A stretch of DNA of 64,000 nt from Lichina pygmaea (taxonomy: Eukaryota > Ascomycota > Lichinomycetes > Lichinales > Lichinaceae), in NCBI GenBank assembly GCA_963422465.1, contig OY730170.1, positions 2,170,001 to 2,234,000 on the forward strand. The letters run 5' to 3'. Under the pieces are notes generated by a model, which was not told the DNA's origin, made no database searches, and saw only the letters and a list, made by a program, of their open reading frames with translations. How positions within the stretch are numbered: the first letter of the stretch is position 1; each line of letters starts with the position of its first letter. Shown here in pieces: positions 995 through 52,851 of the stretch. Position numbers and translations under genes: made by a program.

Positions 995-1084
995 TCATCT
1001 TGTTCAGGGTTGACCCTTTGGATGTGCATATTCCATCATGCTTCCACCTCGGACTCTGGGAACCACATCTTCCTTCTTTTCTCT

Positions 1085-1098
1085 AGAAGGTGTTCCTT
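1085..1098. repeat. target-site duplication, left copy, of chimeric LINE
   Basis: AGAAGGTGTTCCTT occurs here and again at 6532-6545. The two copies are identical and flank the chimeric element exactly; the gypsy-1 sequence is continuous when one copy and the insert are removed. This supports insertion of 1099-6531 as one unit by target-primed reverse transcription. Confidence 0.9.
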
Positions 1099-1099
1099 C

Positions 1100-1975
1100 G
1101 ACAGACGACTACCGTGTACGCTACAGCCTGAAGCCAGCCCCACAGCTGGTGGATGTGAAGTCTAGGCGTCTGATAGAGCACCTCTGGAGTAGTCAAGAGG
1201 AGTTCTCGTCATGTCACCCTCCTAGCAGAGTCTCCAGCTAACGTGTGAGGATCTGCTAGGGGGGGAGTGGCCTTGGCACTGCGGTGTTGTTAATCGAACA
1301 CAGACCACCTGTTAAAGAAGGAGAGTGGTCGTACGAGGAGACGTCGCTGCTCCAGTGCCTAAGGGCTGTGTGATAGCCAAAGTGCTGGCTTGATGGTTTT
1401 GCCTAAGGCCTTGCCACGAAGTCTCTTCGTACAATCCACAATCTGGGGCCAGGGGACTAGGTTATCCAGTGGGCCAACAGGTGCAACCAGGGCCCCACAG
1501 GCGACAGTGGACCAAGGAGAACTTCTCCCTACTTGGTTAGTGGGCTGGAAAGGCAGCCCTGCAGGTGCTGGCACGGCCTGCAGGGTCTGTAAGGCCTACG
1601 AGGCATGGTCGGCCTTTGTACAAGAGATCTGCGAAGGTAACGTGAAACAGTTAATAACTGCGAGGTGTGGCATATAATGGCAGTGACGGAGGTAGGGTCT
1701 GGGCCTACTACGAGACTGTCTATATGGCCCGAGAGGACGGATGCGCATGCCGGTTCGTACGGAGTGCAGGCTTAGACTGCAAACAACAAGCTCAGGGAGC
1801 AAACTACAGTTGGAGCGTGGGCTCTGGGCTGGTGACCCAGCGCTCCGAAGCAGGATCCCAGGGGTGAGCATGTACAGCGGAGTGCAAGAGACCTCGGGAC
1901 TGTGGGAAAGTGTGGTAGAGACCCTGTGGGGGGGTGCCAACTCTACACTATGTTCTGGCATAGTACGACTGTGGC
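1100..1975 (+). repeat. Donor segment (non-LINE 5' part of chimera), copy A
   Basis: GC-richer than the LINE and without any domain I recognise. It is ~90% similar by eye to the inverted copy at 27988-28863, and both copies end at the same sequence, TGGCATAGTACGACTGTGGC. The first ~140 bp keep an open frame ending at 1241 (residues SLKPAPQLVDVKSRRL in the middle) that is also open in the second copy. The following ~730 bp contain several short open frames but no convincing protein. It could be the 3' end of an mRNA (C-terminus plus 3' UTR), or part of another repeat. No tRNA or rRNA signature is evident. Confidence 0.75.
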
Positions 1976-3035
1976 TACTGGCCTCACCAACAGAATCTTC
2001 CAGGAGCTGGAGAATATCAACAAGCGGCTGGACAAACAAGAAACCAAGCCATCATATGCCCAGACTGTCCAAAAATCTATTCCAGCACAAATCCCTCTAC
2101 CTGCAAGAATTCTCAAAGAAGTTCTTGTACATCCTGGTATCCAGCCACCTGACATGGCTAATAGAACTCACATCCAGCTTTTCCAGACTCTTCAAGACAG
2201 ACTACCCAGCCCCTACAACAAGCAGGTCAGAGCAGTAAGGAAACTTCCTTCAGGGGATATCCTTATTAACACAGAAAGCCAAGAGACTAAAGTCTTCCTA
2301 GAGAAAAACCCTGCCTGGGTATCAGCTATCTTCACAAAGGAAGCAACCATCCAGCCCAAGAGATTCCCAGTTCTGATCCATGGAGTCAGAACAGAAGATA
2401 TCCAACCTGAAGACCTGGAGAAAACCTGCCAGATAATCCAGAACAGCAACCTATCTCTGAGCAAACAAATCACCATCCTGAGAGCCTACTGGTCTAAGAA
2501 GGCTATAGCTCAAAAGAAGCCAGTTACCTCTCTCCACCTGGATCTGGCTACCCCTGAACAAGCCAATCTTTTGATTGAGAGTGGGCTAGTGCTGGGGCAC
2601 AGGATGCATGAAGCAGAACCTTTCCTGGCAGACACAGTCATTGCACAATGTTTCAAGTGCTTTGGCTATAGGCACCAAGCACGCTTCTGCAAGAACAAAG
2701 CTGTGTGTAGTGTCTGTGGAGGCCAGCATGAAAGGAGAGCCTGCCAAGTTCCTGAACAGCTTCTCAAGCCAAAATGCTGCAACTGCAGAGGAGCTCACCC
2801 AGCCTGGGCCAGTGTCTGTCCAGTACACCAGGAAGCAGCCAAGAAGGCAAGAGAAGCATGGAACACACGCCCAGGAAAATATGAGATCCCAACAGCTACC
2901 TCTGTTCCAGCTCTACAACCCCCCCCAGTTATGTCTTTCCCTCTCTCTCAGTCTCTACCAGGAGGGAAAAAATGTAAAACAGCTGAGCCAAGCAGAAGCT
3001 CAGAGCAACTCAGAGGTGCACTCCCAGAAGTGTAA
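1950..3035 (+). CDS. LINE-A ORF1 (gag-like, three CCHC knuckles), chimeric start
   Basis: Encodes ~361 residues. The first ATG in frame (1950) lies in the last 26 bp of the donor segment, so the start MFWHSTTVA comes from the donor and LINE-A gag begins near residue 10. A coiled, charged N-terminus (LENINKRLDKQ) precedes an RRM-like central part also present in LINE-B ORF1. Three zinc knuckles follow: CFKCFGYRHQARFC, CSVCGGQHERRAC and CCNCRGAHPAWASVC. It should bind the element RNA as a ribonucleoprotein. A TAA at 3033-3035 stops it early; past it the same frame runs to a TGA at 3117-3119 overlapping the ORF2 ATG. LINE-B ORF1 is 467 residues, so this copy lacks roughly 80 N-terminal residues. 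Confidence 0.75.
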   Translation: MFWHSTTVATGLTNRIFQELENINKRLDKQETKPSYAQTVQKSIPAQIPLPARILKEVLVHPGIQPPDMANRTHIQLFQTLQDRLPSPYNKQVRAVRKLPSGDILINTESQETKVFLEKNPAWVSAIFTKEATIQPKRFPVLIHGVRTEDIQPEDLEKTCQIIQNSNLSLSKQITILRAYWSKKAIAQKKPVTSLHLDLATPEQANLLIESGLVLGHRMHEAEPFLADTVIAQCFKCFGYRHQARFCKNKAVCSVCGGQHERRACQVPEQLLKPKCCNCRGAHPAWASVCPVHQEAAKKAREAWNTRPGKYEIPTATSVPALQPPPVMSFPLSQSLPGGKKCKTAEPSRSSEQLRGALPEV

Positions 3036-3115
3036 ATTCTTTCTTCAAGATCAGCCAACTCTGGAGGAAAGCTACCAGCTAACTCCTTCAAGATCTTTGA
3101 TGCTGAGATGTCTGC

Positions 3116-6100
3116 ATGAAAGACACAAAGCTGACACTTCTCCAGTATAATATGCAAAAAAGCCAATCAGTCCAAGAGCTACTGCTAGCAACCTCAGCTC
3201 TCCAAGAGGTGGACATTATTGCACTTCAAGAGCCCTGGAAAAACCCTCACCTAGAAACAAGCACTTCAACTGTTTTCTCTTCCTTTCTTCCTCTCTACTG
3301 TTCAGAGATTGGCAGAACACTTTTTCTTATTAATAAAAATCTGAAACTCTCTTCTCTTCATCCTACTTTCTGGAATAAAGACTTTGTTTCTCTTGAAATC
3401 TACTTGGAAAACTCTCCTACTTCTCTTTGGGTACATAATCTCTACTTCACCCCATCAAGTCAAGAAAATTACACAGAGGCATCAGAAGCTCTTCTCTGTT
3501 TACTCCAAAATGCTTTACAAGAACAAGGACAACATATTCTTCTCACAGACTCAAATCTTCACCACCCAGACTGGTCAAAGAAAAGAAGACTGTACTCTGA
3601 GACTGCAAACAAGTTTCAAGACCTAATGAAAGATTTAAATCTGGATTTAGCTATTGCACCTTTCACCCCAACCAGAGCAAGATCTCTTTCTGAAAAACCA
3701 TGTTCTGCTATTGATCTGTCTTTTATTTCTTCTTCTCTTTCTAACTCTCTGATCTTCTCTAAAGTGGCTCTTCAGTTCTTTCATGGGTCTGACCACAGAC
3801 CTGTACTAACCTGCCTGGACCTGGATCCTCCAAGGAAAATCTGGAAACAAGAAAGAAACTGGAGAACACTGGACTCAAACCTTGCAAGAGTAGAGTGTGA
3901 GAAGCTACACCTGCCCTTCCACTTCCAAGACAAATATGAAGTGGATGAGTACTTGGAGTATCTTGACAACTTTCTCCAAGAAATAGCAAGCAAATCCACA
4001 CAGCTCCAGAAGCAATCTGGCCACTCAGTTCCCTGGTGGAATCAAGAGATCCAAAACAAGATTAAAGAGAAAAGAAGAGTAAGAAGAAAAGTGCAAAAAA
4101 AGCAAGCAAGTCAAGAGGAACTTGAGCAAGCAACTAAGCTCAAGAAAAAGGCAGTCAGAGATGGAAAACAGAACACTTTCAGACACCAAATCCATGAGCT
4201 GGCCAGCTCTTCAAAGTTCTGGAAGCTTGCAAAGTGGGGAAAGTCCAAAGCCAACAAGACTTCTGATCTTCCTCTGGTTCCTGACCTGGAAACACAAGAA
4301 GGAATAGCCAAAACCTTTGAGGAAAAGACTAAAGCCTTCTCACAACAGTTCTTTCCAAAAGCTCTAGTTCCAGAACCAGGCTCAGAAAGCTCCCAGACTA
4401 TCTCTGAGATACAGCTCTCCCAGGAGGTAACATGTGAAGAAGTGGAGCAAATTGTGGCCAAGAAGAAACCTTTCACAGCAGGAGGGAGAGATAAGCTGCC
4501 AAATGGATTTCTGAGAGCTCTGGGGTCTAGGTTCTGCCAAGCTCTAGCTATTCTGACTTCAACATGCTGGAAACTGGAGTACTTCCCTGAAAGATTTAAG
4601 AGTACAAAAACAGTCTGCTTGAGGAAACCTGGCGAGGGAACCTACAATCAAGCTAAAGCCTGGTGCCCTATAGCTCTGCTAAACACAACAGGCAAGCTGA
4701 TGGAAGCTATTGCTGCAGCCAGACTAAGCAAGATAGCAGAAGAAGCTGGACTATTGCCAGATATCCAGATGAGCTTTAGGAAAGGAAGATCCACAGAAGC
4801 AGCACTTTTCCTTCTAACCTCCCAAGTGGAAAAAGTCTGGAAGGAAGGCATGGTTGCATCCCTACTCTCACTGGATATCTCAGGAGCCTATGACAGAGTT
4901 CTCCCCAAGATACTACAGCAAATTCTGAAAAGAAAAGGAATACCTGCCTGGCTAGCTTCCTGGATCTACTCCTTCTGTGATAAGTGCTCTACCACTCTTG
5001 TCTTTGATGATTCTGAGTCTTGTTCAATTTCTATTCATTGTGGAGTTTCTCAAGGTTCTCCATTATCCCCTATTCTTTTTCTATTCTACATTTCTGAATT
5101 GCATGAGACTGTGCATACTCCCTCTTCTGGTGTATCTGCCCTGGGGTTTGCAGATGATACAAATCTGCTTGCTTTTGGTCACTCCTTGAAAAGTAATCTT
5201 CTGAAGTTAAAGAACACACACCACAAATGTGTATCCTGGGCTGCAAGACGTGGAATGGTCTTCTCACCTGAGAAATATAAAATACTTCATTGTTCCAGAA
5301 GAAGATCAGACAATCTTCAGCTCAAGCTCAGACTGGGGGATGTGATTCTCAAATCAAAAGAAGAAGTGCAAGTACTTGGAGTGTACCTAGATGCAAAGCT
5401 CCACTGGCACAAACACCAGAGGATTATTCTTCAAAAAGCACAGAAAGCACTCTCTTCTCTTTCTAGAACTTCCTATTCTACTTGGGGCTTTCCAGTTCAC
5501 ACATCACGTCTGGTGTACACTGCTATACTGAGATCTCTACTGAGCTATGCAGTGGGGATCTGGTTTAACCCTCTAAGAAAATCCTCCAATATCTCTTCTC
5601 TTGTTTCATTTCAAAACAGATGCCTAAGACTTATTGGGGGTGTCTTCAAAGCCACTCCTTCTATCAGAGAGTGAGCTTTTTCTTCTACCTCTAAACCTAT
5701 ACTTTAAATTTCACACTGCCTGTTTTCTTTCTTCTATTCAAAACTCCCCTCTCAAATACTTTCTTGACAGTATCTTTTCCACTATTTCCAGCTATGCCTC
5801 TCTCTTGAAGAAACCTTTAAAGGAATCCTCAACTATCTCTCCTAAGTGGAAATTCACTTGGTTAAGTCAAATAACTACTAACCAGGCTAGTTCAAAGAAA
5901 GAACTACAAAAGCTCTTTACTAAAGAGTGGGAAGACCATTGGGAAGAGAAGAAAAGAAGAAGCTATCCAGGCTGGCAGACTTTCTGTCAAAAGCCACACA
6001 AAAACAATCTGAAGCTCTACAAAGAGTTACAGAAAGCTGAGGCAAGTCTGCTACTGCAAATCAGGACTGGAAGAATTGGTCTGGCAAGTTTTCTTTTCAG

Positions 6101-6353
6101 AGCTGGAGTTCCTGACTTCCCTACCCCACTATGTGTGTGTGGCCAAGCAGAAGAAACTGCAAAACATATCACCTCTTCATGCTCTCTTTATTCAAGACAA
6201 AGACAACAAGTCTCTTTTAATCCCCAAGACTTCACCACTATTATTTCAAACCCAGAGCTACTACAGAAGTTCTTGTACTGGTTTATGTCTTTGAAAAGAC
6301 TAAACCAGTTTAATCTAGCTTTCAAACTCCACTATTCCCAATCCAATACCTAG
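3116..6353 (+). pseudogene. LINE-A ORF2: APE endonuclease + reverse transcriptase, frameshifted
   Basis: The first frame runs from the ATG at 3116 to 5674, and the rest continues in another frame to 6353 (~1,080 residues in all). The endonuclease comes first: NMQKSQS, LQEPWKNPH, LLTDSNLHHPDWS and GSDHRPV are the APE/EEP catalytic boxes. The RT core follows: LSLDISGAYD (motif A), GVSQGSPLSP (B), GFADDTNLL (C, catalytic DD intact) and LGVYLDAKLHW (E). The C-terminus has a CVCG...H...C motif. A short deletion near 5660, where the LINE-A copy at 20.1 kb has extra bases, breaks the frame after FKATPSI. I see no RNase H domain. This copy cannot make full-length ORF2 without frameshifting. Confidence 0.85.
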
Positions 6354-6531
6354 ATTCTCTTCTCTTACCAGAAACTTCAAGATTCCTTTTGTTATATTCC
6401 CTAGTCACACCCTGCCTTCAGTTTTTATCCCTTCAAAGGTTTTCTGAAGGAGTTCACTATTAGCTAGAAGATCTGCATGGCTGTAAAGCTACTACCAGTG
6501 TAAGAATCAAACAAAATAAAATAAAATAAAA

Positions 6532-6545
6532 AGAAGGTGTTCCTT
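6532..6545. repeat. target-site duplication, right copy, of chimeric LINE
   Basis: Identical to 1085-1098 (AGAAGGTGTTCCTT). It directly follows the A-rich tail of the LINE, after which gypsy-1 sequence resumes. Confidence 0.9.
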
Positions 6546-7930: not shown

Positions 7931-8389
7931 TGTTAAAGGCTGGGCCAGGTTCGCACAGAAGCCAGTACAGTCTGTTGCTTCACAGGGTGGATTCTAGACA
8001 GGGACTTGGTAGATGAATAGACAGGTGGGGTAACTCTCCTGTGCTATTGTCTCAGTACGATGTGTGCATGTGTGTTCAGCCTGGAGAGCTAATCCCTCTG
8101 GGCCTTTTGGGGGGTCTTTATACAGATGCCCCGAGGGGGGGGGTCTCCTCGAGGGGTATCATCCTTTTGCGTGGACAAGCTCCTCGCTTAGGGACTGCTT
8201 GTCCACCGGACAAGCTCCTCGCTTAGGGACTGCTCGTCCACCGGACAAGCTCCTCACTTAGCTCCTGCTCGTCCACCAGACGAGCTCCTCGCTTAGCTCT
8301 TGCTCGTCCACCGGATCGGTCGGATGTTGTTCTGTATGACTAACACTTCTCCCTCGCTTACCTGGGCTGTTCCGGCCTAGACCTTAACA
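7931..8389 (-). repeat. gypsy-1 5' LTR
   Basis: A 459 bp LTR with TGTTAA...TTAACA ends, read on the minus strand. It matches the 392 bp solo LTR at 35501-35892. On the element strand it has a TATA box (CTGTATAAAGA, ~8110-8120) and, before it, four ~36 bp tandem units where the solo LTR has two. Gag begins 35 bp past its inner end; I found no clear tRNA primer-binding TGG just inside the LTR. Its outer edge (8390) abuts LINE-B1, so gypsy-1 inserted into a LINE-B copy whose 5' part must lie left of the window. Confidence 0.85.
8170..8325 (-). repeat. Tandem ~36 bp units in gypsy-1 LTR U3
   Basis: Four imperfect units built on the core GACAAGCTCCTCGCTTAG with a CTCGTCCACCG linker. They lie upstream of the LTR TATA box and may be enhancer-like. 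The copy number differs from the solo LTR (two units). Confidence 0.75.
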
Positions 8390-24644: not shown

Positions 24645-25335
24645 ATTGCAGTCTGTACCATGCTGTCCTAACCGAGTATAGGATTAAGGGCAAGATGTGG
24701 AAGGCAGGTTGGTTCTCGCAGGAGAGGAGTGTCAAGGAGTGTGAAGGGGTTTGGTGGAACGTGGTGGTGGTGACACCTGATCAATGGCTTTGTACAAAAG
24801 AGTGTTGTATTGAAGTAGATCTAGTTGTCTGGATCACAACATGAGTTGAAGATGATTGTTCTATAAGGGAACTATCACCAGACTATATAGTGCTGGCCTG
24901 TCAAGATGATCAAGATTGTCTTGACAGTCTTGACGTCAAGACAGGTGAGATTGTCTTGACAGTCCCACCATGTTATGCACCCTGCGTCAAGACTGGTGAG
25001 ATTGTCTTGATGCTTCATGCACGCTGTGTCGAGACAGGTGAGATTGTCTTGACAGTCCCACCATGTTATACACCCTGCGTCAAGACTGGTGAGATTGTCT
25101 TGATGCTTCATGCACGCTGTGTTGAGACAGGTGAGATTGTCTTGATGCATGCTGCGTCAAGACAGGTGAGATTGTCTTGATGCTTCATGCATGCTGCGTC
25201 AAGCCACCTGTGTTTGTCTCGACAGTCACGTGACTCTTTGTCAGTTTGGTCACTTGACTTTCCATGGTGTCCTCTTGCCTGGCCCACGGTCTGATTGCCT
25301 ATAAATAAGTGGCTCCCATCCCAGGGATTGTAACA
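24645..25335 (-). repeat. gypsy-2 5' LTR (691 bp)
   Basis: Matches the solo LTR at 42269-42836 along its length but carries a larger tandem array (24900-25205). Its inner end reads TATTGCAG where the solo LTR has TGTTGCGG. Nearly all differences from the solo copy lie at CpG sites that here have become TG or CA. A TATA-like CTATATAG lies at ~24885-24893, readable on both strands. Confidence 0.85.
24895..25205. repeat. Tandem repeats in gypsy-2 LTR
   Basis: Repeated modules of the form GTCAAGACAGGTGAGATTG, then TCTTGATGCTTCATGCACGC, alternating with a CAGTCCCACCATGTTATGCA module. At least five GGTGAGATTGTCTTGA cores are present. The solo LTR has four such cores with TCTCGA in place of TCTTGA. 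Confidence 0.8.
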
Positions 25336-26202: not shown

Positions 26203-26345
26203 ATTTTTTTTATTTGATTCTTACACTGATAGTAGCTTTTCAGCCGTGCAGATCTTCTAGCTAGGAGTGATTTTCTTCAGAAAACCTTTAGAGGAATAAA
26301 AACTGAAGACTGGGGGTGACTAGAGGATGTAGCAAAAGGAAATCT

Positions 26346-26992
26346 TTTTTTTGATTTGATTCTTACACTGTTTGTAGCTTTACAGCCATGCAGATCTTCC
26401 AGCTAATAGTGAACTTCTTCAGAAAACCTTTAAAGGAATAAAAACTGAAGACAGGGAGGTGACTAGAAAGTGTAGTAAAATGAAATCTTGTAGTGTCTGG
26501 TAGGAAAAGCTTCTACATGTTGGAGTGTGAATAGTGAAGTTTGAAAGCCAGATTAAATTGGTTTAGTCTTTTCAAAGACATAAACCAGTACAGAAACTTC
26601 TGTAGAAGCTCTGGGTTTGAAATAATAGTAGTGAAATCTTGGGGGTTAAAGAGAGCATGTTGTTTTTGACTTGAGTAGAGAGAGCATGAAGAGGTAATAT
26701 ACTTTACTGTCTCTTCTGCTTGACCACACATGCATAGGGGGGTAGGAAAGTCAGGGACTCCAGCTCTGAAAAGAAAACTTGCTAGACCAATTCTCCCAGT
26801 TCTGGTTTGCAGTAGTAGACTTGCCTCAGCTTTCTGTAGCTCTTTGTAGAGCTTTAGGTTGTTGTAGTGAGGTTTTTGGCAAAACACCTGCCATCCAGCA
26901 TAGCCTTTTCTTTTCTTCTCCTCCTATTGGTTTTCCCACTCTTTAGCAAAGAGTATTTGTAGTTCTTTCTTTGATGTAGTTCTTTCTTTGAT
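26346..26992 (-). mobile_element. LINE-A4, short 5'-truncated copy nested in LINE-A3
   Basis: A 647 bp copy with the ORF2 C-terminus (26513-26887, CMCGQAEETVKYITSSC) and a 3' UTR ending in oligo-T on the plus strand. It interrupts the LINE-A3 3' UTR and is flanked by AAAAGGAAATCT at 26334-26345 and 26993-27004, a 12 bp target duplication. Confidence 0.9.
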
Positions 26993-27441
26993 AAAAGGAA
27001 ATCTTGTAGTGACTGGTAGAAAGAAAACTTCTAGATATTAGAGTGTGAATAGTGGAGTTTGAAAGCCAGATTAAACTGGTTCAGTCTTTTCAAAGACATG
27101 AACCAGTATAGAAACTTCTGTAGAAGCTCTGGGTTTGAAATAATAGAAGTGAAATCTTGAGAATTAAAAGGAGCTTGCTGTCTTTGACTTGAATAAAGAG
27201 AGCATGAAGAGGTGATATGTTTCACTGTCTCTTCTGCTTGACCACAGACACATAAAGGGGTAGGAAAGTCTGGAACTCCAGCTCTGAATAGAAAACTTGC
27301 CAGGCCAATTCTCCCAGTTCTGGTTTGTAGTAGTAGACTTGCCTCAGCTTTCTGTAGCTCTTTGTAGAGCTTCAGGTTGTTGTGGTGAGGCTTTTGACAA
27401 AACACCTGCCGCCCAGAGTAGCTTCTTCTTTTCTTCTCCTC

Positions 27442-27987
27442 CTATTGGTTTTCCCACTCTTTAACAAAGAATTTCTGTAGTTCGTTCTTTGAACTTGCCT
27501 GGTTAGTAGTTAATTGGTTTAACCAAGTGAACTTCCAATAGGGGGAGATAGTTGAGGATTCCTTTAAAGGTTTCTTCACAGAAGAGACATAGTGGGAGAT
27601 ATTAGAAAAGATATTGTCCAGAAGTGTTTTCAGAGAGGAGGTTTGAATAGAAGAGAGAAAACAGGCTGTGCGAAATTTAAAATAGAGATCTAGAGGTAAA
27701 AGAAAAAGCTCACTCTCTAATAAGAAAGATAGAGTGGCTTTGAAGATACCTCCAATAAGTCTCAGGCATTTGTTCTGGAATGTGCTAAGAGAAAAGATAT
27801 TAGAAGATTTTCTTAGAGGGTTGAACCAGATCCCCACAGCATAACTCAGTAAAGATCTGAGTATTGCAGTGTACACAAGACATGATGTGAGGACTGGGAA
27901 ACCCCAAGTAGAATATGAAGTTCTAGAAAGAGAGGAAAGTGCTTTCTGAGTTTTTTGAAGAATAATTCTCTGGTGCTTATGCCAGTG
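27442..27987 (-). pseudogene. LINE-A3 ORF2 fragment (RT end and thumb)
   Basis: Encodes YTAILRSLLSYAVGIWFNP through WENQ on the minus strand, then continues after a stop into 27405-27031 with the C-terminal CVCGQAEETVKHITSSC. A TAG replaces the Trp/Glu codons near 27445, where LINE-A2 reads WEEKKRK. Non-functional on its own. Confidence 0.8.
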
Positions 27988-28863
27988 GCCACAGTCGTAC
28001 TATGCCAGAACATAGTGTAGAGTTGGCACCCCCCCACAGGGTCTCTACCACACTTTCCCACAGTCCCAAGGTCTCTTGCACTCTGCTGTACATGCTCACC
28101 CCTGGGACCCTGCTTCGGAGTGCTGGGTCACCAGCCCAGAGCCCACACTCCAACTGTAGTTTGCTCCCTGAGCTTGTTGTTTGCAGCCTAAGCCTGCACT
28201 CTGTACAAACCAGCATACGCATCCATCCTCTCAGACTATATAGACAGTCTTGTAGTAGGCCCAGGCTCTACCTCTGTCACTGCCATTATATGCCATGCCT
28301 CACAGTTGTTAACTGTTTTGTGTTACCTTTGCAGATCTCTTGTACAAAGGCCGACTATTCCTCGCAGGCCTTACAGACCCTGCAGGCTGTGCCAGCACCT
28401 GCAGGGCTGTCTTTCCAGCCCACTAACCAAGTAGGGAGGAGTTCTCCTTGGTCCACTATCACCTGTGGGGCTCCGGTTGCACCTGTTGGCTCACTGGATA
28501 ACCCAGTCCCCTGGCCCCAGATTGTGGATCATACAAAGAGACTTTGTGGCAAGGCCTTAGGCAAAACCATCAAGCCAGCACTTTGGCTATCACACAGCCC
28601 TTAGGCACTGGAGTGGTGATGTCTCCTTGTACAACCACTCTCCTTCTTTAACAGGTGGTCTGTGTTTGATTAACAACACTGCAGTGCCAAGACCACTCCC
28701 CCCCTAGCAGATCCTCACATGTTAGCTGGAGACTCTGCTAGGAGGGTGACATGACGAGAACTCCTCTCGACTACTCCAGAGGTGCCCTATCAGACACCTA
28801 GACTTCACATCCACCAGCTGTGGGGCTGGCTTCAGGCTGTAGTGTACACGGTAGTCGTCTGTC
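27988..28863 (-). repeat. Donor segment, copy B
   Basis: Inverted counterpart of 1100-1975, ending at the same TGGCATAGTACGACTGTGGC. It again keeps the short frame with SLKPAPQLVDVKSR ending at 28722. Here that frame extends upstream across 28863 for ~35 residues, so the donor transcript may be longer than copy A shows. Confidence 0.8.
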
Positions 28864-29103
28864 AGGTGGTTTTCATCTCCCAAGCTTGGTCGCAGTCCTC
28901 TGTTCTGCTGTAGCTGTTTCACGGGGGTGTCCAGGGTGCCTGCGCGACACCTCCGGTGGCCTGTCACTCCGCAACACCAGCAGCTTGACTGGTGACTTGA
29001 TTAGCTCTCAGTGCAGCGACTACGAGCAGCCTGGGAAGCCACCCGCCATCGACTGCCCCGAGGTTCCCAGCCTGCACCACGTGGAGGTTCAAGTTGTTGC
29101 AGG
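28864..29103 (-). other. GC-rich segment, possible further donor sequence
   Basis: 240 bp between the donor copy B and LINE-A5. On the minus strand a frame runs into the donor frame and reads CWCCGVTGHRRC near 28960-28990, loosely like a CCHC knuckle. It could be the 5' continuation of the donor transcript or simply flanking DNA. There is no second copy in the window to decide. Confidence 0.35.
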
Positions 29104-29955
29104 CCTTCTTTTACTTCTAAATCTCTATTTCAAATTTCACAGTCTGTTTTCTCTTTTCTATTCAAACCTTCTCTCTGAAAACACTTCTGGATAATATCTT
29201 TTCTAATATCTCCCACTATGCCTCTTCTGTGAAGAAACCTTTAAAGAAATCCTCAACTATCTCTCCCTATTGGAAGTTCACTTGATTAAACCAATTAATT
29301 ACTAACCAGGCAAGTTCAAAGAAAGAACTACAGAAACTCTTTGTTAAAGAGTGGGAAAACCAATAGGAGGAGAAGAAAAGAAGAAGCTACTCTGGATTGC
29401 AGGTGTTTTGTCAAACACCTCACCACAACAACCTGAAACTCTACAAAAAGCTACAGAAAGCTGAGGTAAGTCTACTACTACAAACTAGAACTGGGAGAAT
29501 TGGCCTGGCAAGTTTTCTATTCAGAGCTGGAGTTCCAGACTTTCCTACCCCTTTATGTGTCTGTGGTCAAGCAGAAGAGACAGTGAAACATATCACCTCT
29601 TCATGCTCTCTTTATTCAAGTCAAAGACAGCAAGCTCCTTTTAATTCTCAAGATTTCACTTCTATTATTTCAAACCCAGAGCTTCTACAGAAGTTTCTAT
29701 ACTGGTTCATGTCTTTGAAAAGACTGAACCAGTTTAATCTGGCTTTCAAACTCCACTATTCACACTCTAATATCTAGAAGTTTCTTTCTACCAGTCACTA
29801 CAAGATTTCCTTTTGCTACATCCTCTAGTCACCCCCAGTCTTCAGTTTTTATTCCTCTAAAGGTTTTCTGAAGAAAATCACTCTTAGCTAGAAGATCTGC
29901 ATGGCTGAAAAGCTACTATCAGTGTAAGAATCAAATAAAAATAAAATAAAAATAG
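29104..29955 (+). mobile_element. LINE-A5, 5'-truncated copy
   Basis: Starts in the RT thumb region (LLLNLYFKF) and runs to a tail of A/T-rich repeats at ~29935-29955. The ORF2 C-terminus is open from 29397 to 29777 with CVCGQAEETVKHITSSC. It is nearly identical to the 3' part of LINE-A2. Its 5' end meets the donor-containing copy head to head. Confidence 0.85.
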
Positions 29956-35500: not shown

Positions 35501-35892
35501 TGTTAAGGCCTAGGCCGGAACAGCCCAGGTAAGCGAGGGAGGAGTGTTAGTCATACGGAACAACATCCGACCGATCCGGTGGACGAGCAAGAGCTAAGCG
35601 AGGAGCTCGTCCGGTGGACGAGCAGGAGCTAAGCGAGGAGCTCGTCCACGCAAAAGGATGATACCCCTCGAGGAGACCCCCCCCCTTGGGGCATCTGTAT
35701 AAAGACCCCCCAAAGGGCCCGGAGGGATTAGCTCTCCAGGCTGAACACACAATACGAATCCATCGTACTGAGACAATAGCACAGGAGAGTTACCCCACCT
35801 GTCTATTCCTCTACCGAGTCCCTGTCTAGAATCCGCCCTACGAAGCAACAGACCGTACCGGTTTCTGTGTGAACCCGGCCCGGCCTTTAACA
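35501..35892 (+). repeat. gypsy-1 solo LTR
   Basis: 392 bp, TGTTAAGG...TTTAACA, homologous to the 5' LTR at 7931-8389 but with two rather than four of the ~36 bp units. It is flanked by CTCCT on both sides (35496-35500, 35893-35897), and the LINE-A sequence is continuous without it. A TATA box (CTGTATAAAGA) lies at ~35696. It formed by recombination between the two LTRs of a former full element. Confidence 0.92.
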
Positions 35893-42268: not shown

Positions 42269-42836
42269 TGTTGCGGTCCGTACCGTGCCGTCCTAACCGA
42301 GTATAGGATTAAGGGCGAGATGCGGAAGGCGGGTTGGTTCTCGCAGGAGAGGAGTGTCAAGGAGCGCGAAGGGGTTTGGTGGAACGTGGTGGTGGTGACA
42401 CCTGATCAATGGCTTCGTACAAAAGGATTGTATTGAAGTGGATCTAGTTGTCTGGATCACAACATGAGTTGAAGACGATCGTTCCATAAGGGAACTATCG
42501 CCGGACTATATAGTGCTGGCCTGTCGAGACGGGTGAGATTGTCTCGACGGTCCCACCATGTTATGCACCCTGCGTCGAGACTGGTGAGATTAGTCTCGAT
42601 GCTTCATGCACGCTGCGTCGAGACTGGTGAGGCTGTCTCGATGCTTCCTGCATCCTGCATCGAGACCGGTGAGATTGTCTCGATGCTTCATGCATGCTGC
42701 GTCGAGCCACCCGTGTTTGTCTCGACAGTCACGTGACCCCTTGTTGGTTGGTCACTTGACTTCCATGGTGTCCTCTTGCCTGGCCCGCGGCCTGATTGCC
42801 TATAAATGAGTGGCTCCCATCCCAGGGATCGTAACA
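42269..42836 (-). repeat. gypsy-2 solo LTR (568 bp), CpG-rich
   Basis: TGTTGCGG...CGTAACA, flanked by CACAT on both sides (42264-42268 and 42837-42841). It matches the 5' LTR at 24645-25335 but retains CpG where that copy has TG/CA, so it is younger or has escaped mutation. Confidence 0.92.
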
Positions 42837-43760: not shown

Positions 43761-43780
43761 GCCACGGTTGTACTATGCCA

Positions 43781-43990: not shown

Positions 43991-44506
43991 TTGTTCTTGC
44001 CACCTGGAGCAGCATACACCATGTTGGAGTTGGTGAGCCGGTGTGCCATTGAAGCCATGGAGGAGTCAGTGAACTGGTCGGCGATGGGAGAGCTAGAGAA
44101 ATGGTGAGTTGGAGAGCTGGTGAGCCATACTGTACAGTAGAGGCGCTGGTGAGCCACACAGTACGGGAGCCGGTGGGCTGGTGGGCCGTGATGAGCGATT
44201 GAGCTATCGGAGCGCATACGAGCCGTGGGAGCCTATATCCAGTAAGCTTGCGGCACCATCTCAACGAGGAAAGCCACAAGTTGCAGGGTATCTGCATTGT
44301 ATCTGCATTGCTCGTAGAGACGTTCGACGGCATCGCTCGGAGCAGCCCCAAGTTATGTAGCCTCGACAAAGGTTCTAGGCGAACATGCGAGGGTCGCGAC
44401 AGGCGGACGTAGAGCTCAGCTTAAAAGTTGCGACTTGATCCCGCATGCGCGCTCCTGCGTGGAATCTTCGACACATGGTGTTGTGTCCAATCGAAGCCCA
44501 CCGCAC
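43991..44506. other. Unresolved, transition from repeats to host DNA
   Basis: GAGCCGGTG-type short repeats at 44030-44200 (AGTTGGTGAGCCGGTG, AGAGCTGGTGAGCC, GCGCTGGTGAGCC). No gene recognised. Confidence 0.35.
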
Positions 44507-44959
44507 TTACGAACGACCGTGTCGCGGGTTTCGCCATGAGGCAGCTGGCGGCGGCGTCGACATGGCAGGTCGAAGAAAAGCTACCGCCTCCAGATGGCGC
44601 ATGTCCTGCCCGCCTTTCGCATCGATGTTGCCCTTCTTATCGTCATCTCCAGCCTCAGTCGTAGGCTGAGGCGGACCCCATCGTTGCTTTGTAGCAACGA
44701 CTCGCGTCCGTGTTTCTGGAAGACTATTGCCTGCCTCCGCCGTCAAGTCCCCCGGATATCGCGCTCCTGCAAGGGGCCTGCCTGCAGGAGAATCGAGAGT
44801 CATCGGCTTTGCGTTCGCGCTCGATGACGATGGTGACATGAGGCGTGCCCGCGGGCTCGTACAGCTAGCCTGCCAGGCGAAAGTGTCTGCTGGAGGGCAC
44901 GACTTGCGCTTTTGCTTCCATGCCGTCGTGGTGATGGTAGACTTACAAAGGCCGTCCAT
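44507..44959 (-). CDS. Hypothetical ORF, 150 codons
   Basis: Starts at a genuine ATG (44959) and ends at 44507. A GTAAGT donor sequence follows MDGL, so the real gene, if any, may be spliced there. The composition is Ser/Pro/Arg-rich with no known domain. In GC-rich DNA such an ORF may be chance; I would not rely on it. Confidence 0.25.
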   Translation of the reverse strand: MDGLCKSTITTTAWKQKRKSCPPADTFAWQASCTSPRARLMSPSSSSANAKPMTLDSPAGRPLAGARYPGDLTAEAGNSLPETRTRVVATKQRWGPPQPTTEAGDDDKKGNIDAKGGQDMRHLEAVAFLRPAMSTPPPAASWRNPRHGRS

Positions 44960-46150
44960 CCTCAGCCACGGATGAGCTAGTCGGTCGCCTGCTGTCGCCG
45001 AACGCCGTAGCTTCGTTCCCCTCCGACCTCACACCCCTTCTTCCGGCTCCCTTCTTCTCCACTTTTGTTCGTTGAGGTGCTCGGTCGCGAACGGCCACTT
45101 TCTTGAGCCCGGCCTGAAAACACATCTCTCGGCGTTGCTCTGTGTAGTCTTCTCGACCGCTCGGGTCGGACGGGCCAGCTCAACAGCATCGAGAGCGTGA
45201 CAGCCAGCAGCATCAGCACACCAAGCGGAGTGTTGGGACATGGTCCGAGTCAACATGCGCAGGCCACCGAACCCCTCCACCTCGGCACCGGCCCTTTGGC
45301 AAGGGGCTCGATGACGATAGCTATAGCTACAGCGGCGTGGCAGGCAACAAAACCGAGTTTGGTATGCTCGTGCCCCAGAACAAGAGGGAGATCGATCGTG
45401 ACCTTCTCCGGAGCGGCCGAGACACCGGGAGGCGCGGCCGATGCCGACAGCGAACCCAGCGGATAGTGAAGCTGCGTGGCCGGAGGTGTAAGTTCAGCCA
45501 CGGCGCTGTCGACGAGATGGCTGCCTTTCGCCGAGCAGAACGGGCAGGCCGTGCGCTACCACACGTCGATCTGGCGCCTTAGGCTTTCCAAGTAGGGTAC
45601 GCCATCCGAGGCGGACGCGGACGCGAAGCCGTCCTACAACGCCTTTGTGCTCGACACGGCCAAGGACGAGGTCAAGGCTGTCGTCCGCATGAGCATGATG
45701 GATCCGGGCCAACGACAGACGCGGCCGACGGCGTCGGGCACCGCGGACACGCACGAAGGCCAAGGGGCCGACGCAGCAGGAGTAGGAGCAGGACACGGCG
45801 AGGCGATGACGACGAGCGCGGAAGCGGAGGTCGACGTGGTCGTGACCGAGTCGGGCCTCGACGTCAAACTTCCCGTCACGAACGCGAGACCGCGGCTGCA
45901 GCGTGGGGGCGTACGAGAGAGGGCCGCAGAGACCTGTTGGCAAGGTCGGGCGATGCAAGGGCCTGGCACTCTGGGGTTCCGGCGACAAGGTGGGGCTTCC
46001 TTCCTCTCCCGTCCTCCACCCCCTCCCTGCCGCCCCTGCCACGGGGGCGGGGTCTCCTCCAAGGCCGGCACCATCAAACCAGACGAAGGACTGTACCCAT
46101 CGTACGTCCGCAAGCTAAGGTCGTCTCCACTCGACGGGGCCACACCTTGA
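44960..46150 (+). pseudogene. Possible broken or unrecognised gene
   Basis: Plus-strand pieces look protein-like but change frame: SIESVTASSISTPSGVLGHG (45180-45250), then KGLDDDSYSYSGVAGNKTEF and MLVPQNKREI (45300-45400), PFAEQNGQAVRYHTSIWRLR (~45520-45580), and SYNAFVLDTAKDEVKAVVRM within 45640-46150. They could be exons of a spliced gene or remains of a frameshifted one. I recognise no family. Confidence 0.3.
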
Positions 46151-48186
46151 ACGGGGGCAAGCCAGTCAAGCATCACGACTCATTCTTCTTCTCGTCGTCC
46201 TCATTCTCCTCTCTCCCTTTATTTCTTCCTTCCTTTGTCCTTCGTCGTCTCCGTGTTCTCCTTCGTCCCTGTGTTTCTCATATCATCTTTCGTCGTGGGC
46301 GGTCGAGAAGACGAAGATCTTAGCACGACCCTCGCTCGCTCGCCAGTGTCGAAGAAAAGGTCTTGCCGACGAACCGGTGCTCATCCGCATGCCACCGGCT
46401 CTCTATATCTTTTGTCCGAACAACTGTTCTGAAGAGCGTCGTCCTACCGAAGCTTCGAACGCGGCCGAGAACTTCGGACCGGATCGGGGTTCTATCGTAT
46501 CTCTCGTACGTATGCGCACAGGTGGTGGCTTCGTGAACGGTGGCGGGGGTCCTCGACGGCTGGTCCAGCGTCGACGCTGCCACGTCTGGCACGACGAGCC
46601 CTTTGCTTTTCTGTCTGCTCTTCGCCACCGTGCGAGATACTGTACGGTACCGTACGAAGATGCATGCATGACCGGGTTTCAGTACGATTCCTATCCGTAC
46701 TGTACGAACACACATGCGTACCTAGGTTCCAGTACGGCTTGCTTCGAGCCGGGGTGTGAGTGTCGGGTGTCGGGGGTTGGGCATGCGCCCACGGGCCTCT
46801 CCGTCGACGCCACGGGCCGGCATAGTTCGGGCCCATCCTCTCCTGCCAGATGACGACGATGGTGATGGCGACGACGATCACAGACCGAATCTGGGCTTGG
46901 CATTGCCACGGTTGTGATCCACTGCTGTGATCCGACACCGTGACGGCCGTGACTGGACCGTCAGACCTTGCGCGGCCCGCGTCCGAGGTTGCCGACGAGC
47001 CGTCGGAAAAGGCTTCTCGGGACAAATGCCGGTGCCGTGCACATGCATCAGCCAGACCTGGCCCTGAACAGCTCTTTCTATCCGATGGCCTCTCAAATGC
47101 GCTCGTAGAGTGTGGGGGACATGTCCACATCTCTCCAGCACGACGAGGTCTTGAATGTGGCAACCACGCCAGCACCACCGTCTTCTGCCGAAGATCCTGA
47201 CGGGCGTCGGAAATCTTTTCTTCTTCGACCTTCTTGGCCCTCGGCACCGCCGACCCTTGCCGTGATCGTCGAGACCTGCGTCCGCCTGATCTAGTACATG
47301 AAATACGTACGTCGTACCCTCACGCCGTGGGACGCTGAGCATCGAACGGTCTTCCGCCGATGTGGTGGGCGCAGCAGAGGTGGCCGTCTCGACCTCGTGC
47401 GTAAGGTACCGTACGATTCTCCGTACCCTTCCGTACCGGCATCTCCACCTCTCCGCCGAAAGGGGGCGTACGTACGTAGCTGCGTCGCAGTGACCCTAGT
47501 AGACGATGCGACGGGCGGCCGAGCGTGCATCTTTAGCGTTGTCTGAGCCTGGCCCTTTGACGTCGACTTGCCCTCATCTAGATTCCGTTTTCGGCCGAGC
47601 GGCCGTCATCGACAGCATGAGTTACCGGAGTCAGAAGTAGATTCTCTCAGGACGATCCGATACCAGGTACGTAGGTAGAGAGTATGTATGTACCTACGGA
47701 AGCGCACGTGCGCTACGTACGTATGTATGTACTTCCGTATGTACCCGTCATTCGCGAGCTGCTTCCTAAGCCTCGACGATGGGCGATCGGAGCAATGGCG
47801 TCATGATGGGTCCTGGGATACGACGGGTCAGGTGATGCTCGGTCGGTCGATCGGACACGGCCCCGCCCCGGCCCCTCGACCGGCGCTTCGGACGGTGCGG
47901 GGCAAGGTTGCGTGAGAGACTTTCGCGGTGGCGGCCGAGCGGCGCCGAGTGGCGTCGGGCGAGGGGCACACCCCTTAGTAAGCACGGTACGTGCCTTGGG
48001 CGGACGTATAAAGAGATCCTCGGTCGTCCGCCGAGAGGCACGCAAGCGCAAAGCAAAGAAAATCGATCGTCCAAGGAAGCCACGTCGTCGAAGCCGTCGT
48101 CCGAACTCGAACTCCCGATCCTCGATCCGTTCGACAGCCACGAGCAGGCAAGCGCATCCATTCATCCATCCATCCTTCCAACAGTC
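46151..48186. other. GC-rich, GTAC-dense intergenic region
   Basis: Open frames on both strands are long only because of base composition; none shows a domain. From 46640 to 47720 the DNA is crowded with GTACGG/CCGTAC/TACGTA, including the perfect palindromes GTACGGTACCGTAC (~46643) and AGCGCACGTGCGCT (~47700). The last ~200 bp are the promoter and leader of the first metallothionein gene. Confidence 0.5.
48004..48014 (+). promoter_or_regulatory. TATA box of metallothionein 1
   Basis: ACGTATAAAGAG about 180 bp upstream of the ATG at 48187, a plausible distance with a ~150 nt leader. Confidence 0.5.
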
Positions 48187-48351
48187 ATGAAGGGCGAATG
48201 TGGCTGCAGCGGAGCTTCGACCTGCCAATGCGGGCCCAACTGCGGCTGCTCTGGCGGCGTGAGTCTCCCTTGGTCGTCGGATCGGCTCGCCCTGGCTCGT
48301 TTTAGCTTGCGGCCGCTTGGACTGACGACGTGCGGGGCGGTGCAGAGCTAG
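48187..48351 (+). CDS. Copper-metallothionein-like peptide 1 (25 aa)
   Basis: Two exons, 48187-48258 and 48346-48351, around an 87 nt intron (GTGAGT, ACTGAC branch, GTGCAG). The peptide starts MKGECGCSGASTCQCG, goes on with PNCGCSGG, and ends with a Ser from the second exon, which holds one codon and the stop. Six cysteines stand in Cys-x-Cys pairs. The CGCSGAS start and ~25-residue size are the hallmark of the small ascomycete/basidiomycete copper metallothioneins such as the Neurospora one, which has seven cysteines. It should bind Cu(I) in the cytosol and be copper-induced. The intron is in phase with the frame, so an unspliced longer product is formally possible. Confidence 0.85.
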   Translation: MKGECGCSGASTCQCGPNCGCSGGVSLPWSSDRLALARFSLRPLGLTTCGAVQS

Positions 48352-49871
48352 ATCTTGTCCGGTGATATGGCCGAACGCCGAGGCCGTGTCGAACTCGCGA
48401 CGTGGTCAGGAGGGCCAGGAGGGGGGATGACCGGGCTTAGTCAGGTGTCTTTGCGGATGGGCTGGGGGGGGGGGGGGGGGGGAAGGAGGGTGTGTCGCAA
48501 GCAGAAGCCACGTGACATGACGGCGTAGGTCTTGACGAGGCCGCCCATGGTATTGTTCTCGTACCGTAGGCTGTGGGGTGTTGGAAGCAGACCGTCATCA
48601 TAATCGAATGGCACGACGTCGTTGAAAACAATCCGAGACCCCATGTGCTGTCGATGACGACGGATGTGTGCCGTACGTGACTAGGGGTACGTCTGTACAG
48701 CACACGCCCCCGGCCAAGCGGCAAATCGTACGTAATCAAGTCGTCGGTCACCAACCCCGAGCCGTCGCCACTATCGTCACGAACCGCAAGCCCAGGCCTT
48801 TCGTCGCCACCCCCTCCCCGGTGCGGCCGCACACGCCACCGGGCGTTGGGGAGCTGCGGTCGTACGAGTACGGGCTCGGCCAAGCCCCCCATCCTTCCCG
48901 GCCTCAGACGACGAAGAGTGCCACGGCCGGTCGGCCCTCGTCCCGTGACGGGGAACGGGGAGGCCGCGACGGAGAGGTCGAGCTCCGTCGTCGAGGCCGT
49001 TCCGTCTTCCTGTTCCGGTTGGAGTAGAGGAAGGGGTCGGTGCGCGGAAAGTACCAGCGGCGATCCCGTCGTCTCTGCGCACCGACCTCGTCCGTACAGT
49101 ACCAGTCTGCGCGAGCTTCGCAGGGCCGACGTGTCGTCGGTGCGCCCGTTCGCATCCCCGGCGTGGCATGCGGCCTCGACTCGGTTCGGAGAAGCGCGTA
49201 GGGCGGGGCACCCCGACGTCGTACGAGGGCACGCGCTTCTGGGGGGCACGGGCCGGCCGTGGGACGTGTCGGCCTCTGCACTTCGTACCGGTCGTGAATC
49301 GAGCACGATCAGTTGCTCCTCCTCCTCCCCGTGGCCGAAGGCGGAGCGGTATCCTCAGCGTCCCACGCTACCGGCACGTACGGCACGTAGCACGGCTTCG
49401 ACCGGGGCCGGTGCGCTTTGCTGTGGTCGGAGTCATGCTCCCCGGACAGGCTGTGCCGTCACCGGTGACTTGGCCGGGACCGATAATTGGTGCATATGTG
49501 AGGGCCTTCCCGGCAGGTGCGGGGAATGACTCACGAGCCCGGTCGTCCGTTCGATCGTCGCCGAACGCCGCCGAAGGACGCAGACCCCACGCCGCCCTTG
49601 CCGCTTCCGTCGAGGCGTCTGCGTTGGCGTGCCGGTCCCGTCGGGGACCTGGAACCTTCGCGGCCGGTCGAGGCTGGTTAATTGGTCGGGTGACGGGGAC
49701 CGGACAGCTTGTCGGACTTGCGGCGGCGAATATATAAGGCCGCATCGCGCCCCTACTCTTCTTCTTCGCTCCCAACCGACTCGAACTCCGATTCCAAGCT
49801 TCGAGAATCATCAGACCCTTCAACAAGACACTTCTTCGACCAACGTCGCGGCAACGCAATCCGAAAACGAC
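48352..49871. other. Spacer between metallothionein genes
   Basis: 1.5 kb, very GC-rich, with a G-run at ~48463-48482. A 289-codon minus-strand frame (48437-49306) is Arg/Pro/Thr-rich without domains and I judge it a compositional artefact. The TATA box of the second metallothionein lies at its end. Confidence 0.5.
49727..49738 (+). promoter_or_regulatory. TATA box of metallothionein 2
   Basis: GAATATATAAGG about 140 bp before the ATG at 49872. Confidence 0.55.
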
Positions 49872-50035
49872 ATGATGCCTCAGTGTGATTGCTGTCAGTG
49901 CGATAACTGCAACAGCTGCGGCTGCGGCACTTGCGGCGTGAGTGTCCGTGGCCGGCTTTAGGCTGGCTTGACCCCGTGGCAGACGTTCGGTGGAGGAACG
50001 TGGCTGACTCGGCCGTTGGCGTCTCGCAGCACTGA
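49872..50035 (+). CDS. Cysteine-rich metallothionein-like peptide 2 (23 aa)
   Basis: Exons 49872-49937 and 50030-50035 around a 92 nt intron (GTGAGT, GGCTGAC branch, TCGCAG). The product MMPQCDCCQCDNCNSCG continues CGTCG and ends in His from a second exon that again holds one codon and the stop. It has eight cysteines in 23 residues, with CxCC, CxxC and CxC spacing. It shares gene structure with peptide 1, 1.7 kb upstream, but not its sequence, so the pair may be an old duplication or two recruited genes. A second ATG is at codon 2. A role in metal binding is inferred from composition alone. Confidence 0.78.
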
Positions 50036-50461
50036 ATCCGTCATGCGGTGGACCCGGTCGTCAGGCCTGGCGGCTCCGGCTTCCTCGTCTCCCGCAGAAG
50101 GCCTCTGGTCGGACGAGGGAGCGCAACGACGCCGGGCTCGAGCTGAGCCCGAGGCCGCCTGCCCGCCTGGCGCGCCTTGAAGGACCGCTTCGGCCAGGTT
50201 CGACGTCGCTCCGGTACCTGGATCGGCTGGGGTGTGGGGGGATTGGGGTGTGGGTTTGCGGTGTGGGTTTGCGGTGTGGAGTGGCTGGATGGTTCGCTCA
50301 GCGTGGTTCGGAAAATATGGTGTTGCAACGGAGCTTTGTCGACTCAACTCCTGCGTTGTCCGATAGACAATCGAACGCTCCTGCATGCTACCACGCCTTT
50401 CTCCCCCGACGCAGACTTGTAGTAGATGCGGTGGTTTCTTTCGGCTGGTTCGGAAATTGGC
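50036..50461. other. Intergenic, metallothionein 2 to peroxin (convergent)
   Basis: Two 3' ends meet here. A short repeat GGGTGTGGG/GCGGTGTGG runs at 50228-50280. No gene recognised. Confidence 0.5.
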
Positions 50462-52411: not shown

Positions 52412-52851
52412 CCACCGTCATGGGATCTAAAGGAGCTGTCGGAGGGTGATACAACATTGACGTGAAGGAGCTGAAAGACTGCGACGATCGAAGAGTCCGG
52501 CGGCAGGCTTCCTACCGGAGCACGTCGACGTAGAGTACTGTACGGAGTACGGAGCACACGCCGCGAAGTCCGAAGCTGATTATATAAGCATCTACGGAGT
52601 ACGATAGGTACGTGTACTCCTTTTCATGTGAAACAACATGTGAGTACGGAGTACTACTCGTATGTACGGGAGTACTGCACCTGAGCACGTGACTCGAGTA
52701 GGGTAAAGTTGCTGTTTGGCCATCCGACCCGGCTATTCCTTCGACTGAAAATTTACACCGATCAACCTCGAGCATTTTGCCCTTTTTGTACATCTTCGCG
52801 GCGATCCGCTGGGTTGGAGCAGCAAGGCCTTCCCCAAGACGTACAGCCGTC
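52412..52851. promoter_or_regulatory. Divergent promoter, peroxin / pam16, GTAC-rich
   Basis: 440 bp between start codons. TACGGAGTAC-type motifs recur at ~52537-52550, 52590-52600 and 52645-52660, with a TTATATAAGC TATA-like box at ~52580. Confidence 0.5.

What the first reader, a model, noticed from the sequence alone, without database searches (positions are those of the whole stretch)
27988..28863. Same donor, same donor end, different LINE breakpoint
The donor recurs inverted and ends at the identical base, but is joined here to RT motif E of LINE-A, ~3.4 kb further 3' than at 1975. Two fusions with one fixed donor 3' end and different LINE breakpoints are what template jumping onto the 3' end of a particular RNA predicts. 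They are hard to explain by DNA recombination.
Basis: partly seen in the sequence, partly recalled or inferred. Interest (0 to 1): 0.82.

Follow-up and report, generated by a model that had tools for sequence, protein, structure and literature searches.

The report
Ribozyme-headed RNA fused onto LINEs
In this probably fungal genome a 1.1-kb non-coding RNA that appears to begin with a self-cleaving ribozyme has been copied many times onto shortened LINE retrotransposons, always ending at the same base, and two versions of the RNA join the LINE by different sequence rules, which may help to show how such chimeras are made.

Summary
LINE breakpoints scatter. The full donor is 1,117 nt; the copy at 1099 is 5'-truncated. 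Its fixed 5' end is the first base of a predicted HDV-like ribozyme (below Rfam's cut-off; pairing supported). Donor plus LINE are flanked as one unit by 11-14-nt duplications in 9 of 20 copies scanned and in window copy 1. LINE-mediated chimera formation is well supported; splicing and internal deletion are not. The proposed ACTGG microhomology is coincidence. Type-A junctions instead follow CT^YY in the LINE (44 of 58 distinct sites; background 3.8%), while sister type B shows CT in 0 of 32 and follows ^YY: the rule depends on the donor RNA. One of 62 donors with both flanks is a solo insertion inside a LINE. Closest precedent: WEIRD-MGL 'MINE' chimeras of Magnaporthe. I did not find the ribozyme head or donor-specific rules in print.

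The parts
27989..29105 (-). donor, copy 2 (the finding): full-length type A, 1,117 nt, 5' end at 29105, 3' end ...GACTGTGG at 27989
28993..29105 (-). predicted HDV-like self-cleaving ribozyme at the donor's first base (P1, P1.1, P2, P3, P4, J4/2 GCUAA); one P2 pair is broken in this copy
   Evidence: RF00094 28.6 bits at 28991-29107, gathering score 50; pairing counts
26204..27988 (-). 5'-truncated LINE part of copy 2, breakpoint homologous to LINE-A 5402, A-rich tail near 26204; interrupted by a later LINE insertion at about 26347-26992
29106..29951 (+). LINE fragment in the opposite orientation that abuts the donor's 5' end
1085..1098 (+). left target-site duplication of copy 1 (AGAAGGTGTTCCTT)
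1099..1974 (+). donor, copy 1: type A, 5'-truncated at donor position 242
1975..6531 (+). LINE-A part of copy 1 (ORF1 with CCHC-like motifs by eye, endonuclease and RT domains, (AAAAT)n tail)
6532..6545 (+). right target-site duplication of copy 1
43762..43780 (-). third donor end in the window: about 19 nt of donor joined to a GC-rich sequence that resembles the GC-rich LINEs (by eye)

Best explanation
This is a family of LINE-mediated chimeric retroelements. A 1.12-kb non-coding RNA, whose 5' end is probably made by an HDV-like ribozyme and whose 3' end is ...GUGG, is joined to 5'-truncated LINE sequence, and the pair enters the genome as one insertion by target-primed reverse transcription. 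Shown by sequence: constant donor ends, sense orientation, scattered LINE breakpoints, LINE tails, 11-14-nt duplications around the unit, and two donor types with different junction rules. Inferred: the LINE proteins do the copying; the ribozyme cleaves; type B joins when the reverse transcriptase leaves the LINE RNA and restarts at the RNA's 3' end, helped by a YY/CC match; type A joins by a route that also depends on a CU just before the join (template jump, RNA ligation or endonuclease priming; not resolved).
For: 100 type-A ends (98 fetched plus the window's two) all change to other sequence directly after GTGG; 97 of 100 have a homologous reference, nearly all LINE, in the sense direction; 45 distinct LINE-A breakpoints among 76 mapped. 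19 of 21 aligned copies start at [A/G]GCCTGC after unrelated flanks. Duplications of the whole unit next to a LINE-type tail in 9 of 20 donors scanned and in window copy 1. Ribozyme topology: 97.3% of pair cells standard, slid versions 25-37%, covariation score above all 500 shuffles. Target sites CT^A or GT^A. Tripartite copies: A on truncated B (L018) and B on truncated A (L158).
Against: No source gene for the donor was found, so the RNA and its 3' end are inferred. The finding's own copy lacks a recognisable duplication, as do 11 of 20. Rfam scores stay under the gathering cut-off in every hit, and 4 of 14 unrelated control genomes also gave sub-threshold RF00094 matches; the number of pairs changed on both sides (3) is reached by 84 of 500 shuffles. 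Plain template jumping does not explain type A's CT^ rule. One donor is a solo insertion, which a jump does not make. The two window-type junctions at the same repeat target (window copy 1 and C5:3839719) could be misread as one event.
Confidence: 0.82

Rival explanations
1. Endonuclease-primed re-entry (an alternative for the type-A joining step only): the LINE endonuclease nicks just-made LINE DNA at CT^, and the freed 3' end primes copying of the donor RNA; LINE DNA upstream of the nick is lost unless it was already sealed.
For: T at -1 and C at -2 mark both type-A junctions and many genomic target sites (CT^A in 36 of 88 flanks against 7 and 8 in control offsets). One solo donor sits inside a LINE at CT^TC with a 16-nt duplication. 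Type B, on overlapping LINE families, lacks the signature (0 of 32), so it is not a pause of the reverse transcriptase on LINE RNA.
Against: Genomic sites also use GT^A (19 of 88; controls 6 and 6) but junctions have G at -2 in 0 of 61 contexts. Only 1 of 62 donors is solo. Cutting of cDNA or RNA:DNA hybrid by such an endonuclease is an assumption.
Confidence: 0.27
2. RNA-level joining (an alternative for the type-A step): LINE RNA is cut at CU^YY and the donor RNA is ligated to the fragment before reverse transcription.
For: Explains the sense orientation, the loss of LINE 5' sequence and why only LINE-ended products are seen. RNA ligation is a discussed route for U6/LINE-1 chimeras (PMC13174262, passages).
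Against: Does not explain the solo insertion with its duplication, nor, without an extra assumption about RNA ends, why type B lacks the motif. No nuclease with this specificity is known to me (recall).
Confidence: 0.25
3. Two steps: the donor inserts alone into genomic LINEs, and donor-LINE read-through RNA is then retrotransposed.
For: One such founder exists (L176). Some breakpoints recur in several copies.
Against: Founders are 1 of 62, while distinct breakpoints are most of the sample (58 distinct contexts among 78 usable junctions). No solo copy outside LINEs was recognised among the 100 type-A ends. Copies with one breakpoint are not monophyletic in their LINE part, on short trees.
Confidence: 0.06
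4. The donor is the native leader of one LINE, and the other junctions are splice forms or internal deletions of it.
For: Four copies join at, or 2 nt from, the 1975 site and may be a full-length element with the donor as its leader.
Against: No splice acceptor: AG before the breakpoint in 0 of 58 contexts. The same donor end is fused to diverged LINE families, GC-rich ones included, and to another donor. Flanks differ between copies.
Confidence: 0.04
5. Chromosomal DNA recombination or gene conversion between repeats made the junctions.
For: Repeats are dense in the window's TE block, and two chimeras lie at the same place in copies of one repeat.
Against: A constant donor base, one orientation, duplications around the unit and a 4-nt junction motif are not expected.
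Confidence: 0.03

Closest known systems
MINE (WEIRD-MGL chimeras) of Magnaporthe (PMC2104539: parts 1-3 of 5 read, plus passages)
   Same: A 1.1-kb non-coding RNA (1,113 nt) with full-length 5' part, fused to 5'-truncated LINE at many sites; 10-20-bp duplications; no solo copy found there; a breakpoint motif; a tripartite case
   Different: Published WEIRD primer sites (PMC3978060 passage) do not match this donor better than shuffled sequence; motif GCC^A/U there, CT^YY or ^YY here; no ribozyme mentioned there (0 occurrences of the word); here two donor types with different rules and one solo insertion
U6/LINE-1 and other LINE-1 chimeras (PMC4476161 and PMC13174262, passages)
   Same: RNA with a constant end fused in sense to 5'-truncated LINE within duplications; template switch or RNA ligation proposed
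   Different: Donor here is an unknown 1.1-kb RNA with a predicted ribozyme head, and the two donor types obey different junction rules
[quoted passage not shown]
   Same: HDV-like ribozyme sets the 5' end of a non-autonomous element and can be joined to another LINE's 3' end
   Different: There short fixed fusions in rDNA; here a 1.1-kb donor on very many breakpoints of several LINE families at dispersed sites
HDV-like ribozymes at the 5' ends of non-LTR retrotransposons (search listing and abstracts)
   Same: Ribozyme starts at the first base of the element
   Different: Here on a donor RNA that is shared among LINE families; cleavage untested

Membership tests
MINE-type chimeric retroelement | Full-length non-coding RNA with constant ends in the 5' part | tested here: met
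   1,117-1,118 nt in 30 of 30 paired ends
MINE-type chimeric retroelement | 3' part is a 5'-truncated LINE with varied breakpoints, flanked with the donor by duplications | tested here: met
   45 distinct LINE-A positions among 76 mapped; duplications in 9 of 20 scanned and in window copy 1
MINE-type chimeric retroelement | Components are WEIRD and MGL themselves | tested here: inconclusive
MINE-type chimeric retroelement | Breakpoint motif GCC^A/U in the LINE | tested here: not met
   Type A CT^YY, type B ^YY; so I call it MINE-like, not MINE
HDV-like ribozyme | Nested double pseudoknot P1-P4 with J4/2 cytosine | tested here: met
   97.3% of cells paired on 25 distinct sequences; two P2 pairs are broken in 5 and 6 of 25
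HDV-like ribozyme | Score over Rfam RF00094 gathering cut-off | tested here: not met
   best 43.9 against 50 bits
HDV-like ribozyme | Self-cleavage | not testable with these tools
   needs in vitro transcription
U6/LINE chimera | Donor is U6 or another known small RNA | tested here: not met
   No family over gathering score in the window; only sub-threshold hits in the donor
R2 SIDE | Ribozyme at the first base of a non-autonomous element | tested here: met
   (predicted only)
R2 SIDE | Ribozyme and 3' end derived from autonomous elements, inserted in rDNA | tested here: not met
   Units sit at many CT^A or GT^A sites, not one fixed rDNA site; whether the donor derives from a LINE leader is open
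SINE | Independent copies with their own duplications predominate | tested here: not met
   1 solo of 62 donors with both flanks and 0 of 18 type-B copies
SINE | Internal RNA polymerase III promoter | not tested
   no scan was made

The most novel reading that the evidence does not exclude
A self-cleaving RNA parasite of LINEs: it has no gene of its own, survives only as a leader joined to LINE copies, and one of its two lineages (type A) has a sequence-guided joining step at CU^YY, distinct from the microhomology jump used by type B.
Probability: 0.3. Interest if true: 0.82.

Novelty: new variant of a known kind. Interest (0 to 1): 0.62.

Why it matters
How LINE chimeras form (template jump, RNA ligation or new priming) is still argued. 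Here one genome holds at least 220 donor ends of two sister types (120 type A, and the 100 exact type-B ends listed of 152) that join overlapping LINE families by different rules, so the models make different, testable predictions. A ribozyme head would explain the fixed 5' end and would let a fused element define its own start, turning a one-off chimera into a leader that LINE families can keep reacquiring.

Tried and rejected
ACTGG microhomology: rejected, absent from the other junctions. Splicing: rejected, AG before the break in 0 of 58. Tandem donor arrays as source of the 3' end: the GTGG|GGCC join searched with up to 3 mismatches, 0 hits. Donor as a coding sequence: stops in all six frames of both types, A/B differences 48, 58 and 61 over the three codon phases. 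Known small RNA as donor: ARAGORN found 0 tRNA genes in the window, Rfam 0 matches over gathering score, only sub-threshold ones in the donor. GC-rich partners with fewer CT junctions (2 of 5 against 44 of 53): suggestive only, p=0.055. A 9-nt match with one mismatch at C1:4934746/4935863 was taken as chance, because the flank is not the LINE sequence that precedes that breakpoint. Same-breakpoint copies are not monophyletic in any of 5 groups, but the trees rest on about 230 nt. Microhomology at breakpoints in the strict sense: the donor's GTGG is not matched by the LINE bases before the break.

Rows dropped before counts; 97 of 100 had a reference, 78 passed the filter (identity at least 90%, match start within 2 nt, length at least 100), 58 distinct contexts; 19 were dropped for weak references and 3 had none; 83 of 102 type-A ends (two loci are present twice) and 34 of 41 type-B ends had a reference. 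From the type-B count I took out 7 contexts that were type-A variants (TACAACTGTGG) caught by the loose pattern; 3 of them had CT; 39 of 40 fetched 5' stretches showed a donor start and 30 could be paired with a fetched 3' end; of the 9 unpaired, three are type B by position, and the rest were not followed, so donors lacking the usual 3' end are not excluded; 4 of 17 extra copies had no donor start where expected. The listing shows 100 of 120 ends and that shows 100 of 152. The organism was not identified.

Full report
What is there. The genome is eukaryotic and, I infer, probably a filamentous ascomycete: the window encodes a Pex24-type peroxin and part of a CTP synthase, and contig lengths leave seven large contigs and, by subtraction, one of about 48 kb. 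I could not name the species.

Donor anatomy. Aligning the upstream flanks of 21 donor copies shows that the donor continues upstream of 28863 and, in 19 of 21, starts sharply at [A/G]GCCTGC (29105 in the window), preceded by unrelated sequence. Its length is 1,117-1,118 nt in 30 of 30 paired ends. A sister type B, 85% identical (944 of 1,111 aligned positions of the majority lines), ends in GCTCAACTGTGG; 152 ends within two mismatches were found, some of which are type-A variants, and 17 of 18 whole type-B copies are 1,124 nt. The donor has no conserved reading frame.

Ribozyme. Rfam's HDV ribozyme model hits exactly at the donor's 5' end: 28.6 bits in the window, 39.0 in L015, up to 43.9 genome-wide, all below the gathering score of 50 (in one search, 4 of 14 control genomes also gave sub-threshold matches). 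The HDV topology, drawn by hand, gives 97.3% standard pair cells on 25 distinct sequences; sliding the partner drops pairing to 25-37%; the covariation score exceeds all 500 shuffles, but the number of pairs changed on both sides (two in P2, one in P4) is reached by 84 of 500, and two P2 pairs are broken in 5 and 6 of 25 sequences, the finding's copy among them. Eighteen type-B copies fetched at such hits all carry a donor 3' end about 1.12 kb downstream. Cleavage is untested.

Junctions. One hundred type-A ends were read (the 100 listed of 120 found). After GTGG the sequence changes at once; the next base follows the LINE in 58 of 58 distinct contexts. 97 of 100 have a homologous reference, nearly all LINE; one is a truncated type-B donor. 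Of the other three, L005 has a LINE-type tail and a duplication, L009 a partner of roughly 0.4 kb with a CAAT-type tail and an 11-nt duplication read by eye, and L034 is a short donor remnant. 76 map on LINE-A at 45 distinct positions between 1976 and 6125, with hot spots near 4970, 5121, 5186 and 6120. The finding's breakpoint (5402) recurs at C4:3449419, there in LINE-A itself, while the finding's LINE is a subfamily about 85% identical to it; this argues for independent events at one site.

Junction grammar. At type-A breakpoints the LINE reads C T ^ Y Y: CT in 46 of 58 and CTYY in 44 of 58, against 9.9% and 3.8% in LINE background; a recount that includes two duplicate loci gave CT in 48 of 61. 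All 12 exceptions have C at +1 and 10 of them CC. Type B has CT in 0 of 32 distinct contexts and ^YY in 28 of 32 (Fisher p about 1e-14 against type A for CT). Both types use overlapping LINE families, so the rule follows the donor RNA. On donor templates each type keeps its rule in the one case seen of each: type A on truncated B at CCT^CGGGG (L018) and type B on truncated A at AAAA^CCACC (L158).

Insertion as a unit. Nine of 20 donors scanned carry duplications outside the donor and directly after a LINE-type tail, 11-13 nt exact (L005 over 17 nt with one mismatch); window copy 1 has 14 nt at 1085-1098 and 6532-6545. Genomic target sites are CT^A (36 of 88 distinct flanks; controls 7 and 8) and GT^A (19 of 88; controls 6 and 6). 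The finding's own copy has no recognisable duplication; its 5' side abuts a LINE fragment in the other orientation, and its LINE part is interrupted by a later LINE with its own 13-nt repeats.

Solo insertion. Of 62 donors with both flanks read (30 and 19, one of the 19 being type B, and 13), one, C5:73168-74284, lies alone and in sense inside a LINE with a 16-nt duplication at CT^TC (L176). The script also flagged a 9-nt match with one mismatch, which I take as chance. None of 18 further type-B copies is solo.

The same 14-nt target is used by window copy 1 and by C5:3839719 (L103), which carry different junctions (1975 and 6119). The target lies in a repeat with 157 matches within three mismatches, and the C5 copy has 241 more donor bases at its 5' end, so neither is a simple deletion product of the other; I read this as two insertions into two repeat copies.

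Reading. Chimera formation by LINE machinery is well supported. Type B looks like ordinary template jumping to an RNA 3' end with a short match. Type A needs more: the CT that marks its junctions is lost from the product and is also seen before the nick at many genomic target sites, but genomic sites allow G at -2 and junctions do not (0 of 61). Template jump, RNA ligation and endonuclease priming therefore all remain open for type A. No standalone source gene was recognised among the ends read.

Known work. MINE chimeras in Magnaporthe (PMC2104539, parts 1-3 of 5 read) match closely in architecture: a 1,113-nt non-coding RNA, found there only fused to other elements, with a breakpoint motif. 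Their motif differs, the word ribozyme does not occur there, and published WEIRD primer sites do not match this donor. R2 SIDEs join an HDV-like ribozyme to other elements (PMC3414825, abstract and section 8). U6/LINE-1 chimeras and the RNA-ligation option are in PMC4476161 and PMC13174262 (passages). I found no report of a ribozyme-headed donor or of donor-specific junction rules in searches; the library lacks most subscription papers, among them the original MINE paper (recalled, not seen).

Noticed in passing
window 1-1098 and 6546 onward: The target of copy 1 is a retroelement-like repeat (protease/integrase-like by eye, unconfirmed); its 25-nt target stretch has 157 matches within 3 mismatches in the genome, and another chimera sits at the same spot in a copy on C5.
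   Followed up: partly
window 26347-26992: A LINE fragment with its own 13-nt repeats (26334-26346 and 26993-27005) lies nested in the 3' part of the finding's LINE.
   Followed up: partly
window 29106-29951: A LINE fragment in the opposite orientation starts exactly at the donor's 5' end and carries a LINE tail; how this inverted arrangement arose is unexplained.
   Followed up: partly
window 24934-25219 and 42563-42725: Related tandem arrays with units of about 35-93 nt (GTCAAGACAGGTGAGATTGTC-like) lie inside the TE block and near its edge.
   Followed up: no
window 8173-8315 and 35575-35647: 35-nt tandem units, apparently the same unit in opposite orientations.
   Followed up: no
window 1-38000 against 44000-64000: Sharp base-composition contrast: mostly 39-52% GC in the TE block, 56-67% GC in the gene-bearing part.
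   Followed up: no
L018:1103-1197 (-): A tRNA gene (Rfam 55.1 bits) lies about 190 nt upstream of a chimera insertion; whether chimeras favour tRNA neighbourhoods was not examined.
   Followed up: no
L177:91-365: A further unnamed repeat, shared with L002, L008, L017 and L019, adjoins a donor remnant.
   Followed up: no
window 3107-5674: LINE ORF2 has relatives at 97% identity with 274 member sequences; the close relatives show endonuclease and RT domains but no RNase H domain, unlike the distant ones.
   Followed up: no
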